Source: a virus. From it: a stretch of DNA of 64,000 nucleotides. Every line of letters begins with the position of its first letter. Positions within the stretch are counted from its first letter, which is position 1. The notes under the pieces were generated by a model. That model did no database searches. It saw only the letters and a program-made list of their open reading frames with translations, and was not told the origin of the DNA. This document shows, piece by piece, positions 4,274 through 14,866 of this stretch. The position numbers were made by a program, and so were the translations under genes. The stretch covers positions 24,250 to 88,249 of IMG/VR virus record IMGVR_UViG_3300042398_001307; one strand, 5' to 3'.

Positions 4274-4390
4274 ACAGGATACGTGTTTTTAGCCTGGCGC
4301 TCTCCCATCTGAGCTACATTTCTATTGAAATGGTAGGACTTGAACCTACGACATCTAGGGTATATAAACTTGCTGAATGTATCCTAAAAA
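4274..4390 (-). tRNA. Permuted tRNA cassette A (possibly Ile, anticodon uncertain)
   Basis: Minus strand order: AGGATAC leader, ATTCAGCA, anticodon-stem 3' strand (CCTAG), T arm (GTAGG-TTCAAGT-CCTAC), acceptor hairpin CATTTC-AATA-GAAATG, D arm (GCTC/GAGC), anticodon-stem 5' strand (CCAGG), AAAAAC, GTATCCTG trailer. The 3' half thus precedes the 5' half. The acceptor is closed by four bases and one anticodon-stem pair is mismatched, so it may be decaying. Joining at 33/34 would give anticodon TAT. Confidence 0.65.
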
Positions 4391-4394
4391 TTAG

Positions 4395-4498
4395 CAGGGT
4401 CACTGTATTATACTGGCATACAACCATTATACTTCTAGACGGAATCGAACCGTTCCACCAGTTTGGCTTAATATAAAATGCTGAACTGACCCTAAATT
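4395..4498 (-). tRNA. Permuted tRNA cassette B (Gly-GCC, acceptor lost)
   Basis: End helix AGGGTCA/TGACCCT with GTTCAGCA. The interior is in permuted order: GCCAA-ACTGG, T arm, then a Gly-like D arm (GTATAATGG), CCAGT-AT. Joining between positions 33 and 34 restores a perfect CCAGT/ACTGG stem and the loop ATGCCAA (Gly-GCC). Only six bases lie between the T and D arms, so no normal acceptor stem can form. It begins right behind the CCA of the initiator-like tRNA. Confidence 0.7.
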
Positions 4499-4573
4499 TG
4501 GAAGCGGGAGTTGGATTTGAACCAACGACCTCTGGGTTATGAGCCCAGCCATCTACCACTGATATACCCCGCG
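4499..4573 (-). tRNA. tRNA-Met(CAT), initiator-like
   Basis: Anticodon loop CTCATAA on a stem with three consecutive G-C pairs at 29-31/39-41, plus an unpaired 1-72 position (C-U). Both are hallmarks of bacterial initiator tRNA. CCA is encoded. Confidence 0.85.
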
Positions 4574-4587
4574 ATAATTCTTGTTAT

Positions 4588-4655
4588 AACTGATACTATA
4601 GTAGATGTATATTTGATCTATGATCGCTATTATTATATGTAATAGCATCAGTTAT
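4588..4655 (-). ncRNA. Structured leader RNA before the initiator-like tRNA
   Basis: Minus strand ATAACTGAT ... ATCAGTTAT closes a domain holding a GCTATTA/TAATAGC hairpin with a 7-nt loop and a GATC-ATA-GATC hairpin. It begins just after the promoter at 4663-4691. The function is unknown. Confidence 0.5.
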
Positions 4656-4662
4656 TTTTAGT

Positions 4663-4691
4663 AGTATACTTGATAATATTTTAGTTGTCAA
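4663..4691 (-). promoter_or_regulatory. sigma70-type promoter
   Basis: TTGACA, 17 bp, TATACT on the minus strand, reading into the leader RNA and the initiator-like tRNA. Confidence 0.85.
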
Positions 4692-4701
4692 GTATTTAAA
4701 A

Positions 4702-4759
4702 CAGGCTCATTTTTTCTTGTTTGCAATAAGATTATGTTATGCTGAATTGAGCCTAAAAT
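4702..4759 (-). ncRNA. Minimal P1/CAGCA cassette C with Cys-GCA anticodon arm
   Basis: End helix AGGCTCA/TGAGCCT, ATTCAGCA, then only a hairpin TCTTA-TTGCAAA-CAAGA: an anticodon arm (loop with U33 and anticodon GCA) with an A-C mismatch at 31-39. No T, D or acceptor arm. It starts one base behind the CCA of tRNA-Gly. Confidence 0.6.
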
Positions 4760-4760
4760 T

Positions 4761-4834
4761 TGGAGCGGACTACGAGATTCGAACTCGTTTAGCTAGCTTG
4801 GAAGGCTAGAGCACAACCCATATGCCAAGTCCGC
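4761..4834 (-). tRNA. tRNA-Gly(TCC)
   Basis: Complete cloverleaf: acceptor GCGGACT/AGTCCGC, anticodon stem CTAGC/GCTAG with loop CTTCCAA, T loop TTCGAAT, CCA encoded. Confidence 0.95.
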
Positions 4835-4843
4835 AATGTTTAA

Positions 4844-4902
4844 CAGGATACGTTTTATTTCACCAATTGAAAGTTTTGTATTTGCTGAATGTATCCTAAA
4901 AC
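4844..4902 (-). ncRNA. Minimal P1/CAGCA cassette D
   Basis: End helix AGGATAC/GTATCCT with ATTCAGCA. The interior is one hairpin TTTCA/TGAAA with a 5-nt loop. I see no clear anticodon loop in this copy. Confidence 0.55.
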
Positions 4903-4903
4903 T

Positions 4904-4979
4904 TGGAGCCTCCAATAGGAATCGAACCTACAACCCCCTGATTACAAATCAGGTGCTCTACCAATTGAGCTATAGAGGC
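4904..4979 (-). tRNA. tRNA-Thr(TGT)
   Basis: Complete cloverleaf with anticodon arm CCTGA-TTTGTAA-TCAGG, T loop TTCGATT, CCA encoded. Confidence 0.95.
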
Positions 4980-4987
4980 ATTATTCT

Positions 4988-5128
4988 TTAAACTTTGTGT
5001 TTAGTGCCACACACTGTACAAGTGGCGTTAACTTTTTTGAAATCAAGGTTCATTACTCGCATACCTTTTCCGTATGTTTTGTCTTGAAATTCATGATTAC
5101 AATTGCATTTCTTTACTTCTACAGCCAT
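4988..5128 (-). CDS. Small zinc-ribbon protein
   Basis: 46 residues with CNC near the N-terminus and CTVCGTKH near the C-terminus, which together could bind one zinc. The start MAVEVKKCNC overlaps the stop of the upstream gene (TAATG), so translation is coupled. The function is unknown; such tiny zinc-ribbon proteins are common in large phages. Confidence 0.7.
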   Translation of the reverse strand: MAVEVKKCNCNHEFQDKTYGKGMRVMNLDFKKVNATCTVCGTKHKV

Positions 5129-13472: not shown

Positions 13473-13583
13473 ATCATATAATAAAGCATACTACACGGAA
13501 TTGAACCGTCTTCATTCAAGCCAGGAGCTCAAACTGTGATCCACACAACGCTGATCAGACGCTAATATGCTTTATTATATGAT
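13473..13583 (-). ncRNA. tRNA-like RNA with 18-bp terminal stem (R4b)
   Basis: A perfect 18-bp terminal stem (ATCATATAATAAAGCATA and complement) encloses a T-arm-like ACGG-TTCAATT-CCGT near the 3' end, a TGTG/CACA hairpin and a GAGCTC segment. It resembles a tRNA with a stretched acceptor, but I cannot build a normal anticodon arm. It ends one base before tRNA-Lys. Confidence 0.5.
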
Positions 13584-13584
13584 T

Positions 13585-13660
13585 TGGTAGGACCGCCGAG
13601 ACTCGAACTCGAATTCCCGGATTAAAAGTCCGGTGTTCTAACCAATTGAACTACGATCCC
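13585..13660 (-). tRNA. tRNA-Lys(TTT)
   Basis: Acceptor GGGATCG/CGGTCCT, anticodon arm CCGGA-CTTTTAA-TCCGG, T loop TTCGAGT, CCA encoded. Confidence 0.95.
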
Positions 13661-13726
13661 AAATTTTCTTGCCTTCTTTTTCTGTTTTTGTCTTTCGTTT
13701 CATAATTATTTCCTATGTTGTTATAG

Positions 13727-13793
13727 CAGGATACGTTTTTACTAGTTGAATTAAAAGTTCAGTGTAAATTGTTTGCTGAATGTATCCTAAAAC
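13727..13793 (-). ncRNA. Minimal P1/CAGCA cassette N with Lys-TTT anticodon arm
   Basis: End helix AGGATAC/GTATCCT, ATTCAGCA, then hairpin TGAA-CTTTTAA-TTCA (anticodon TTT). It has its own promoter upstream and lies next to the ordinary tRNA-Lys. Confidence 0.65.
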
Positions 13794-13807
13794 TGTTTAT
13801 GCTGTTA

Positions 13808-13835
13808 ATTATACAGCATTTTTATACGTTGTCAA
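13808..13835 (-). promoter_or_regulatory. sigma70-type promoter
   Basis: TTGACA, 16 bp, TATAAT on the minus strand, directly before minimal cassette N. Confidence 0.9.
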
Positions 13836-14148
13836 TTATTTTATCTGGATATTGTGCATCACGGCGTTCAATTTCAGCATATGGACTGTATCCAGGCTGT
13901 AATTCCGTGATATTAGTAAATCCATTGGTTTCTGTAATCAAACTATCATTAGAATCGATAGAACCACGATATTTACTACCATAACTACCTTCTAATTTAC
14001 CAGTACTCGGATTAAGATCACCCCATTTAGTGTGATTACCACCGATAACTTCAATATAGTAAGTTTTACCAGTTCTGTATGAATAAACAACATGTCTACC
14101 GGTATCTTCAGTTTTTGTAAAAAATTTCTTTCGGGTTTCTTCGTCCAT
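13822..14148 (-). CDS. Hypothetical protein
   Basis: 108 residues, MDEETRKKFFTKTEDTGRH..., hydrophilic with a GKTYYIEVIGG strand, GDLNPSTGKLEGSYGSKYRGS and a tyrosine-rich GYSPYAEIERRDAQYP end. AGGAAAC lies before the start. No family recognised. Confidence 0.6.
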   Translation of the reverse strand: MDEETRKKFFTKTEDTGRHVVYSYRTGKTYYIEVIGGNHTKWGDLNPSTGKLEGSYGSKYRGSIDSNDSLITETNGFTNITELQPGYSPYAEIERRDAQYPDKIIDNV

Positions 14149-14166
14149 AATAGTTTCCTTTGTGTT

Positions 14167-14240
14167 TGGTGCCTCCTGATAGAATCGAACTACCGCAACC
14201 AGTGTGTAAGACTAGTGTTCTCCCATTAAACTAAGGAGGC
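14167..14240 (-). tRNA. tRNA-Val(TAC)
   Basis: Acceptor GCCTCCT/AGGAGGC, anticodon arm CTAGT-CTTACAC-ACTGG, T arm GGTAG-TTCGATT-CTATC, CCA encoded. Confidence 0.93.
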
Positions 14241-14241
14241 T

Positions 14242-14419
14242 AAAATTGGTGCTTTCTTATTCCCGGCTATCACAGAGGTTGCCACTTGTACTTCATGGTT
14301 CTCAACTTGCAGGTTCTGGCGGAACAGAATTCTCGTATTGCCAACGTGCTTTTGGTTCAAAGCATACCACCCGTGTGTATCACCACACTTCTTATCCTCT
14401 GGGTCAGAGTATCCGTTGA
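14242..14419 (-). ncRNA. Structured RNA with serial hairpins (R5)
   Basis: Four clear hairpins in series on the minus strand: CTCTG-ACC-CAGAG, GTGTG/CACAC, GCTTT/AAAGC, TTCTG/CAGAA. It is GC-richer than its surroundings. One frame is open for about 65 codons, but it has no start codon or ribosome site, so I favour a non-coding RNA. Confidence 0.45.
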
Positions 14420-14698
14420 TTAGACAGATCGTTCTTCAAGTACTTGTTGTTCCCATTTGCTTTTTAAATAGATTTTTTTACCATGCAACCAATATTCTTC
14501 TTCTGTGAAATTAGTAATAACAGCAGGGCCGTGTTCATTATGATATTTCCCATTTTGACAATAACAAGTTCTGCGGCCATCATATCTAATAATTGCTGGG
14601 CCATCTGTATTATGCGATACCCCATTCTTCATAAAAACTACTGTTGTATCAGATACGCTAATAGTGAGTTCAGGATTTTCTGGGTTAATATATTTCAT
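14420..14698 (-). CDS. MORN-variant repeat protein
   Basis: 92 residues from MKYINPENPELTISV with two degenerate repeats of the form G..HN.DGPA.I.Y.. : VSHNTDGPAIIRYDG and YHNEHGPAVI, then EEEYWLHGKKI. This is the YwqK-like or MORN-variant pattern common in large phages and giant viruses. The fold is a small beta meander; its partners are unknown. Confidence 0.65.
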   Translation of the reverse strand: MKYINPENPELTISVSDTTVVFMKNGVSHNTDGPAIIRYDGRRTCYCQNGKYHNEHGPAVITNFTEEEYWLHGKKIYLKSKWEQQVLEERSV

Positions 14699-14723
14699 AA
14701 TTACCAAATTGTAAAGTTAAAAT

Positions 14724-14799
14724 TGGTGCTACCGACTGGGATCGAACCAGTATAGCTGGATTTTCAGTCCAATGCATGAACCATCACTGCCACAGTAGC
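14724..14799 (-). tRNA. tRNA-Phe(GAA)
   Basis: Acceptor GCTACTG/CGGTAGC, anticodon arm TTGGA-CTGAAAA-TCCAG, T loop TTCGATC, CCA encoded. Confidence 0.93.
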
Positions 14800-14807
14800 A
14801 AAATTAT

Positions 14808-14866
14808 CAGGATACGCTTTTTCATTTTTCAAGAATGTTTTTTTAATTGCTGCATGTATCCTAAAA
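14808..14866 (-). ncRNA. Minimal P1/CAGCA cassette O with Ser-TGA anticodon arm
   Basis: End helix AGGATAC/GTATCCT, ATGCAGCA, then hairpin CATT-CTTGAAA-AATG (anticodon TGA). No other tRNA parts. A promoter lies 10 bp upstream. Confidence 0.65.

What the first reader, a model, noticed from the sequence alone, without database searches (positions are those of the whole stretch)
4274..14866. A family of permuted tRNA cassettes with a covarying end helix and a conserved CAGCA motif
On the minus strand at least 15 cassettes in this span (18 counting 3.25-3.69 kb) share (U)UUUAGG-NNNN, N-U-(U/A)-CAGCA at the 5' end and an A-rich stretch, NNNN-CCUG at the 3' end. The two NNNN strands pair in every copy although the sequence differs: ATAC, GTCA, CTCA, ATGC, ATCT, TTAG, ATCC, ATGA, CTAG, ATGG and two further variants. 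This is compensatory variation, so the ends form an RNA helix. Inside the fuller copies the tRNA is circularly permuted: 3' half, linker, 5' half. Cassettes H, I, J and L have fully paired 7-bp acceptor stems although the strands are in reversed order. Permuted tRNAs are known from some red and green algae and an archaeon; I know of none with this motif in a phage.
Basis: partly seen in the sequence, partly recalled or inferred. Interest (0 to 1): 0.97.

Follow-up and report, generated by a model that had tools for sequence, protein, structure and literature searches.

The report
Phage Y RNAs that mimic tRNAs
This phage carries about 18 small non-coding RNA genes, each a shared 7-base-pair handle (probably gripped by a Ro60-like protein encoded next door) joined to a different imitation of part of a tRNA, which is probably a large and previously undescribed branch of the Y RNAs rather than a set of scrambled working tRNA genes.

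Summary
There are 18 minus-strand cassettes, plus one more directly before a gene. In unbiased relatives the end helix is perfectly complementary in 129 of 137 cases (shuffles: mean 12, maximum 24). CAGCA is the core motif.

The permuted-tRNA-gene reading fails. The acceptor stems are closed by caps of mostly 3-8 nt, and 3 of 81 caps carry CCA (24 of 26 real tRNAs do). Most cassettes are not permuted tRNAs at all: short ones present anticodon stem-loops (U33 in 129 of 159).

The cassettes are Y RNAs of a Ro60-like RNP. The next gene (1265-2677, DUF2828+DUF7788) has the Ro60 fold: the eight best PDB matches are all Ro60/TROVE. This family is present in 24 of 27 cassette-phage records. Conversely, 75 of 79 loci taken by the protein have cassettes. 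A cassette lies 0-40 nt before the start codon in 82 of 123 genes. Window cassettes match Rfam YrlA below its cut-off (E down to 1.6e-6).

Permuted tRNA-like Y RNAs are known. Anticodon-arm Y RNAs in large sets, the CAGCA core and the leader cassette appear new. Function is inferred: decoys for tRNA-targeting nucleases (about 0.4) or adaptors for RNA decay and quality control.

The parts
1265..2677 (-). Ro60-like protein gene, 470 aa: DUF2828 (N-terminal) + DUF7788 (C-terminal, vWA-like with DVSGS motif); putative partner of the cassettes
   Evidence: Pfam PF11443 5.9e-21, PF25043 8.7e-48; PHROG 850 'RNA-binding protein' 1.5e-140; AF2 pLDDT 80.8; Foldseek top 8 PDB hits all Ro60/TROVE, E 1.8e-8 to 1.2e-6
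2696..2733 (-). Leader cassette just before the Ro-like gene (ends 18 nt from ATG): AGTTTAG...AACAGCA...CTAACCT, one mismatch, no mimic module; putative autoregulatory operator
   Evidence: a cassette 0-40 nt before the gene in 82 of 123 relatives
2744..2771 (-). Consensus sigma-70 promoter TTGACA-16-TATAAT for the leader and Ro-like gene
   Evidence: 12 of 12 match; consensus match only
3249..3463 (-). Large cassette (about 215 nt), AGGATGG/CCATCCT, core CTGCA instead of CAGCA; insert of unknown identity
3475..3580 (-). Cassette AGGCTAG/CTAGCCT, insert of unknown identity
   Evidence: (E 1.1e-4)
3591..3682 (-). Cassette GGAATAG/CTATTCC, insert of unknown identity
   Evidence: sequence
4276..4385 (-). 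Cassette with permuted tRNA-like module, acceptor capped by AATA
   Evidence: Rfam YrlA 38.7 bits, E 1.1e-5
4396..4493 (-). Cassette AGGGTCA/TGACCCT with partly degenerate tRNA-like module
4703..4754 (-). Short cassette, anticodon-arm-like (TCTT-ATTGCAA-, anticodon UGC)
   Evidence: E 1.9e-7
4845..4897 (-). Short cassette, anticodon-arm-like (TTTC-AATTGGT-GAAA)
   Evidence: E 1.2e-9
7177..7238 (-). Short cassette, anticodon arm CAAT-CTCAAAA-ATTG (anticodon CAA)
   Evidence: sequence; (E 1.7e-9)
7249..7335 (-). Cassette with hairpins and a T-arm
7548..7625 (-). Cassette with T-arm, short acceptor-like hairpin and D-arm
7636..7768 (-). Cassette AGAATGC/GCATTCT with permuted Leu-like module, 8-bp acceptor capped by CTG
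7907..8028 (-). Cassette with permuted tRNA-like module (acceptor CGGGGAT/ATCCCCG); consensus promoter at 8101-8074
   Evidence: Rfam YrlA 41.6 bits, E 1.6e-6
10091..10202 (-). Cassette with permuted tRNA-like module, 7-bp acceptor capped by 4 nt
10515..10604 (-). Atypical cassette AGGATGA/TCATCCT with an unpermuted tRNA 3' part ending in CCA
   Evidence: similar cassette in L069 1379-1469
11143..11260 (-). Cassette with anticodon arm (ATTGTAA loop), T-arm, capped acceptor and D-arm: permuted at the D/anticodon junction
   Evidence: Rfam YrlA 31.8 bits, E 1.1e-3
11579..11641 (-). Short cassette, anticodon arm TTTGA-CTGCTAA-TCAAA (anticodon GCU); consensus promoter 11688-11661
   Evidence: (E 3.7e-11)
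13728..13788 (-). Short cassette, anticodon arm TGAA-CTTTTAA-TTCA (anticodon UUU); consensus promoter 13835-13808
   Evidence: (E 2.6e-12)
14809..14862 (-). Short cassette, anticodon arm CATT-CTTGAAA-AATG (anticodon UGA)
   Evidence: E 1.2e-8

Best explanation
The cassettes are phage Y RNAs. The 7-bp end helix plus CAGCA(A) is a common handle bound by the phage's own Ro60-like ring protein (DUF2828/DUF7788). The variable insert is a module that imitates part of a tRNA: an anticodon arm, a tRNA body with a capped acceptor in permuted order, or a tRNA without its acceptor stem. A further cassette in the leader of the protein gene probably lets the protein control its own synthesis. Shown by computation: the helix, the core motif, the tRNA mimicry, the Ro60 fold of the neighbour, and the two-way association of the RNA and the gene across phages. 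Inferred: physical binding, autoregulation and function. The most likely function (about 0.4) is that Ro-bound mimics act as baits for host enzymes that attack tRNAs, above all anticodon nucleases. The next (about 0.3) is that they tether or gate RNA-decay and quality-control enzymes, as YrlA does. The confidence given is for the identity as Ro-bound Y RNAs, not for the bait function.
For: Helix: 129 of 137 perfect against a shuffle mean of 12. Anticodon arms: 7-nt loops with U33 in 129 of 159 hairpins, typical C32 and A37A38, and several compensating stem versions of the same loop; 113 of 271 short cassettes pass a strict test against 4.6 in shuffles. Ro60 partner: domain hits, fold search in which the eight best PDB matches are all Ro60/TROVE, D273/S275/S277 invariant in 37 relatives. 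The family is in 24 of 27 cassette-phage records and 0 of 14 control genomes. Conversely 75 of 79 loci picked by the protein carry CAGCA+helix cassettes, 233 same-strand hits against 9-42 for nine control 5-mers. Leader cassette 0-40 nt before the start codon in 82 of 123 genes; 2 hits in control windows inside the gene. Some leaders are about 35 nt with only helix and CAGCA, as a minimal binding site would be. The handle is seven pairs long, like the vertebrate Ro60 site (PMC4726728). Cassettes flank Ro-like genes in Listeria, Campylobacter, Staphylococcus, Mycobacterium and Aeromonas phages. YrlA model hits. For baits: UUU and UGU make up 34% of U33 arms against about 6% of the tRNAs in the same loci, and A/U at position 36 is 87% against 56%. 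tRNA-Lys and other U-rich anticodons are cut by Cas13a (PMC11042736).
Against: No binding, expression or knock-out data exist for these RNAs. Rfam's YrlA model stays below its gathering score (41.6 against 69), and TROVE (PF05731) itself does not match. In 3 of 27 records the protein was not found; these may be fragments. Inserts of 150-260 nt resemble no known RNA and no rRNA, so 'tRNA mimic' does not cover every module. The anticodon bias may be inflated by relatedness between phages.
Confidence: 0.84

Rival explanations
1. Circularly permuted tRNA genes: the ends pair, the halves are joined in the anticodon arm, the linker is cut out and a working tRNA results.
For: 3'-half-before-5'-half order and paired acceptor strands are real; 24 of 79 permuted inserts are called tRNA by ARAGORN after rotation and 0 before.
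Confidence: 0.04
2. Y RNAs as above, but the modules are tethers and gates: they bring nucleases such as PNPase, or modification enzymes, to the Ro ring for decay or quality control of damaged RNA, and are not decoys.
For: This is the studied role of YrlA: its tRNA-like domain binds PNPase in the RYPER complex and is modified by DusA and TruB (PMC8394870). RNA ligase family PF09414 is in 15 of 25 records tested, and Listeria phage LMTA-148 has RtcB and RNA ligase near the gene.
Against: One adaptor does not need 10-18 copies with different anticodons. RtcB is in only 1 of 25 records.
Confidence: 0.3
3. Spacer or processing elements of the tRNA operon: hairpins that separate tRNAs or guide RNase cuts, with inserts drifting freely.
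For: 237 of 578 cassettes start within 8 nt of a CCA end and 111 within 14 nt of a CCTG as at the end of another cassette.
Against: Cassettes also occur away from tRNAs in tandem next to the Ro-like gene (LAh_6, SEP9, APT65); inserts keep anticodon-loop and tRNA-fold features; a cassette sits in the gene's leader.
Confidence: 0.03
4. DNA-level repeats such as recombination or mobile-element sites.
For: Inverted repeats at both ends, many copies.
Against: The helix varies by paired changes while an asymmetric single-strand core is kept; 233 hits on the gene's strand against 47 on the other; consensus promoters precede several.
Confidence: 0.01

Closest known systems
YrlA / bacterial Y RNAs with Rsr (Salmonella, Mycobacterium; Rfam RF02553), including those of mycobacteriophages (Chen et al. 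2014)
   Same: Two-part RNA: end helix for the Ro protein plus a permuted tRNA-like module with D, T and acceptor arms, acceptor closed by a loop; gene beside a Ro60-family protein. YrlA model hits at E 1.6e-6 to 1e-3 in the window and 2.7e-5 in mycobacteriophage MsGreen.
   Different: Below the Rfam cut-off; core is CAGCA(A), whereas the TROVE-type phage RNA in RHph_TM30 has CTTCATCGCA; 10-18 copies per genome in some phages; anticodon-arm modules; copy in the protein's own leader.
Ro60 / TROVE proteins
   Same: Predicted fold: helical part plus vWA; best PDB hits include Xenopus Ro60 and Ro60 of Thermus phage phiLo.
   Different: Pfam TROVE does not match; family is DUF2828 + DUF7788, PHROG 850.
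Permuted tRNA genes of algae and an archaeon
   Same: 3' half encoded before 5' half.
   Different: Capped acceptor, no CCA, no usable anticodon loop, inserts of other kinds in the same frame.
Phage-encoded RNA decoys of defence (Racr solitary CRISPR repeats; from memory)
   Same: If the bait reading is right: RNA mimics made by a phage to occupy a defence component.
   Different: Would target tRNA-attacking enzymes and be displayed on a protein ring; not shown.
T4 rnaC and rnaD stable RNAs
   Same: Non-tRNA small RNAs in a phage tRNA cluster.
   Different: No CAGCA helix motif.

Membership tests
Permuted tRNA genes | 3' half precedes 5' half with complementary acceptor strands | tested here: met
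   81 of 163 T-arm cassettes; about five in the window
Permuted tRNA genes | Linker that can be removed to leave a tRNA 3' end taking CCA | tested here: not met
   Cap 3-8 nt in 66 of 81; CCA in 3 of 81 against 24 of 26 ordinary tRNAs
Permuted tRNA genes | Usable anticodon loop after joining | tested here: not met
   After rotation ARAGORN of 79, mostly with odd or incomplete anticodons
Permuted tRNA genes | Joined mature tRNA in cells | not testable with these tools
   needs small-RNA sequencing
Y RNA (YrlA) | 5' and 3' ends form a stem | tested here: met
Y RNA (YrlA) | tRNA-like domain with D, T and capped acceptor arms | tested here: met
   permuted class only; short cassettes carry an anticodon arm instead
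Y RNA (YrlA) | Rfam RF02553 score above the curated cut-off | tested here: not met
   best 41.6 bits against 69, E 1.6e-6
Y RNA (YrlA) | Encoded with a Ro60-family protein | tested here: met
   24 of 27 cassette records; 75 of 79 loci the other way; same strand
Y RNA (YrlA) | Bound by that protein through the end stem | not testable with these tools
   leader cassette is indirect support
Ro60 protein | Ro60 fold (TROVE ring plus vWA) | tested here: met
   Foldseek E 1.8e-8 to 1.2e-6, TM 0.51-0.60, the eight best hits all Ro60/TROVE
Ro60 protein | Pfam TROVE PF05731 | tested here: not met
   0 of 19 records; DUF2828/DUF7788 match instead
Ro60 protein | vWA MIDAS D-x-S-x-S | tested here: met
   D273, S275, S277 invariant in 37 sequences
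tRNA anticodon arm | 5-bp stem, 7-nt loop, U33 | tested here: met
   159 of 271 short cassettes have the hairpin, 129 with U33; shuffles 24 and 6

The most novel reading that the evidence does not exclude
A phage anti-defence system made of RNA: a set of Ro60-bound Y RNAs, each displaying a different tRNA part, above all U-rich anticodon arms such as Lys-UUU and Thr-UGU, to soak up or inhibit host anticodon nucleases and other tRNA-cutting toxins, with a leader cassette adjusting the amount of Ro protein to free Y RNA.
Probability: 0.38. Interest if true: 0.94.

Novelty: new variant of a known kind. Interest (0 to 1): 0.82.

Why it matters
Bacterial Y RNAs have been a curiosity with one or two tRNA-like forms per genome and an uncertain role. 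Here is a branch with hundreds of members, a clear handle motif, a recognisable protein partner found in 681 phage records, modules that imitate specific tRNA parts, and a leader copy that predicts autoregulation. Cultured phages that carry it (Aeromonas LAh_6 and APT65, Listeria P100 type, Mycobacterium MsGreen, E. coli wV8) make the old question of what Ro60 and Y RNAs do in bacteria directly testable. If the modules are baits, it would be an RNA answer to tRNA-cutting immunity and would predict which nucleases the hosts use.

Tried and rejected
Known RNA families: window and cassette-rich loci scanned with Rfam; nothing above cut-off in the window except tRNA, tmRNA and Polynucleobacter-1, YrlA below cut-off.

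T4 rnaC/rnaD as relatives: no motif. rRNA mimicry of the 150-260 nt inserts, suggested by eye: blastn against E. coli 16S/23S/5S gave no better hits than shuffled inserts. TROVE partner: absent in 19 records, which led to DUF2828.

RtcB as constant neighbour: 1 of 25; RNA ligase: 15 of 25, absent from the window record. Bacterial origin: of 112 pattern loci in the bacterial genome collection only L209, a contig binned with a Neisseriaceae MAG, held convincing cassettes.

Listeria CKA15 transcriptome as proof of expression: its hottest non-coding region, 26236-26727 (PMC12282133), maps by offset to a ROOL RNA and not to the cassettes at 25216-25575, so expression of the cassettes there remains unproven.

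My first collection scan had too few fixed bases. Simple minimum-energy folding of the AU-rich short cassettes often missed the anticodon arm.
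Full report
WHAT IS THERE. The window is part of an 88-kb virus record with 26 ordinary tRNA genes called by ARAGORN. Between and beside them on the minus strand lie 18 cassettes of the form UUUU-AGGNNNN-N-U-(U/A)-CAGCA ... A-rich-N'N'N'N'-CCU-GUU. 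A nineteenth, imperfect one is at 2696-2733, directly before the gene at 1265-2677.

IS IT MORE THAN CHANCE. I fetched relatives with degenerate DNA patterns and recovered 578 distinct cassettes in 214 viral loci. To avoid choosing pairs for pairing, I took cassettes by the 5' motif and an independent CCTGTT rule: 129 of 137 were perfectly complementary, with 26 different N4 sequences, while re-dealt strands gave 12 on average and 24 at most. Over all occurrences of the 5' motif, 153 of 241 had the exact partner against 10 and 1 in two controls. In a 38-row alignment six of seven pairs change on both sides. In the bacterial and archaeal genome collection only one contig carried convincing cassettes, binned with a Neisseriaceae MAG, so the family is essentially viral.

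WHAT THE INSERTS ARE. Most short cassettes (up to 68 nt) hold a hairpin. Of 271, 159 have a 7-nt loop on at least five pairs (24 in shuffles), and position 33 is U in 129; C32 and A37A38 prevail. These are anticodon arms, and the same loop occurs on several compensating stems. Anticodons are far from random: UUU and UGU make up 34% of the U33 arms, against about 6% of the 2,949 tRNAs with readable anticodons in the same loci, and A or U at position 36 is 87% against 56%. Longer inserts (86-135 nt) mostly contain a T-arm (136 of 168). Some are tRNA bodies permuted at the anticodon stem or at the D/anticodon junction, others are tRNAs whose acceptor is replaced by the handle. Inserts above about 136 nt fall into classes that I could not identify; they do not resemble E. 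coli rRNA more than shuffles do.

WHY THEY ARE NOT PERMUTED tRNA GENES. In 81 permuted inserts the acceptor strands are joined by caps, 4 nt most often and 3-8 nt in 66; CCA opens the cap in three, although 24 of 26 ordinary tRNAs here carry CCA. After rotation ARAGORN recognises 24 of 79 as tRNA-like, mostly with odd anticodons, and none as encoded. They look like tRNAs but cannot become chargeable tRNAs by a simple route.

THE PARTNER. A permuted cassette gave a hit to Rfam YrlA, the bacterial Y RNA, a known tRNA mimic that binds a Ro60 orthologue (PMC8394870). DNA searches found related unannotated stretches in named phages, some beside TROVE or DUF2828 genes. Pfam DUF2828 is present in 24 of 27 cassette records and in none of 14 control genomes. 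In the window it is the gene just downstream. Its predicted structure (pLDDT 80.8) matches Ro60/TROVE in the eight best PDB hits, and the MIDAS residues D273, S275 and S277 are invariant in 37 relatives. Starting from the protein instead, 75 of 79 viral loci hold cassettes on the same strand, 233 hits against 9-42 for nine control words. The pairing holds in phages of distant hosts: Listeria LMTA-148, Campylobacter NCTC12673, Mycobacterium MsGreen (gene named 'Ro-like RNA binding protein'), Staphylococcus SEP9 and Aeromonas APT65, and Aeromonas LAh_6 with ten model hits, eight of them within about 1 kb upstream of the gene. In wV8 the cassettes lie in the tRNA cluster after the gene. Rhizobium phage RHph_TM30, with a TROVE protein, has a YrlA-like RNA with a different core (CTTCATCGCA) and no model hit.

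THE LEADER CASSETTE. In 82 of 123 distinct genes a cassette ends within 40 nt of the start codon, next to the ribosome-binding site; equal windows inside the gene gave 2. Some leaders are only about 35 nt, helix and CAGCA with no module. This is what an operator bound by the gene's own product looks like, and it is the best indirect evidence that the protein recognises the handle. Four of the window's elements (leader, 8028, 11641, 13788) have perfect TTGACA-16-TATAAT promoters; these are consensus matches, not proof.

HOW IT PROBABLY WORKS. Step 1 (shown by sequence): each RNA has a constant handle and, in most cases, a tRNA-mimic module. Step 2 (strongly inferred): the Ro-like ring binds the handle. 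The vertebrate Ro60 site is likewise a seven-base-pair helix, with bulges (PMC4726728). Step 3 (inferred): when Y RNA is scarce, free protein binds its own leader and lowers translation. Step 4 (open): the module engages something that recognises tRNAs. The choice of anticodons and the range of tRNA parts favour baits for tRNA-attacking enzymes; Cas13a cuts U-rich anticodons, tRNA-Lys in particular (PMC11042736). Competitive inhibition of an anticodon nuclease has been suggested for YrlA (PMC7790460). The alternative is tethering of decay enzymes, as in RYPER.

WHAT IS KNOWN AND WHAT IS NEW. Known: Ro60 proteins and tRNA-mimicking Y RNAs in bacteria and mycobacteriophages; TROVE proteins in jumbo phages (PMC7824862); a guess that some abundant RNAs of Listeria phage CKA15 are Y RNAs (PMC12282133). 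I could not read Chen et al. 2014 itself, so parts of this may be described there. None of the four open papers found with the word DUF2828 concerns phages or Y RNA, judging by titles and abstracts. Appearing new: anticodon-arm Y RNAs, sets of 10-18 per genome, the CAGCA core, the leader copy, and the spread across phages.

LIMITS. All evidence is comparative. Counts of related sequences are not independent. The window record is a fragment, and its host is not known from this work.

Noticed in passing
window 19289-19588 (-): Permuted (two-piece) tmRNA, Rfam tmRNA_permuted 92.5 bits, in the phage.
   Followed up: no
window 19132-19206 (-): tRNA with CUA anticodon (ARAGORN names it Pyl), a likely amber-suppressor tRNA next to the tmRNA.
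   Followed up: no
window 17829-17975 (-): Polynucleobacter-1 RNA (Rfam RF01718, 83.1 bits), an orphan RNA family, here in a phage beside the tRNA cluster.
   Followed up: no
window 13390-13585 (-), similar at 15580-15685: By eye, back-to-back elements closed by long AU-rich helices (AATCATATAATAAAGCATA/TATGCTTTATTATATGATT; TTTTATATTAAAGTGCATTA/TAATGCATTTTAATATAAAA), without CAGCA, one with a T-arm-like stretch: possibly a second family of tRNA-mimic RNAs.
   Followed up: no
L048 2591-2799, L103 1773-2001, L372, L385 and similar: Cassettes with 150-260 nt inserts sharing strings such as GGAAAGAC and GGAACTGAACCGATATACTGGGGATGGGG, or TGGAGC..TTTGAAGGT..GAGTTTCGAT; identity unknown, not rRNA-like by blastn.
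   Followed up: partly
L437 4469-5020 (Listeria phage LMTA-148): ROOL RNA (90 bits, just under cut-off). By offset it matches the most transcribed region of Listeria phage CKA15 (26236-26727), which its authors left unidentified.
   Followed up: partly
Listeria phage CKA15, gene CKA15_055 (PMC12282133, Table 1): The Ro-like protein was detected by mass spectrometry in purified virions (57% coverage), so the RNP might be packaged.
   Followed up: no
window 22358-24412, 34271-37839, 3690-3977: Phage genes for a CHASE2-cyclase protein, a Cpn60-family chaperonin, Hsp70 and GroES.
   Followed up: no
short cassettes in many loci (e.g. L114 1078, L119 735): About a quarter of anticodon-arm loops have A32, some with C or U at 37 (ATTGTCA, ATTATCA), unlike real tRNAs: perhaps altered to avoid modification or cutting.
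   Followed up: no
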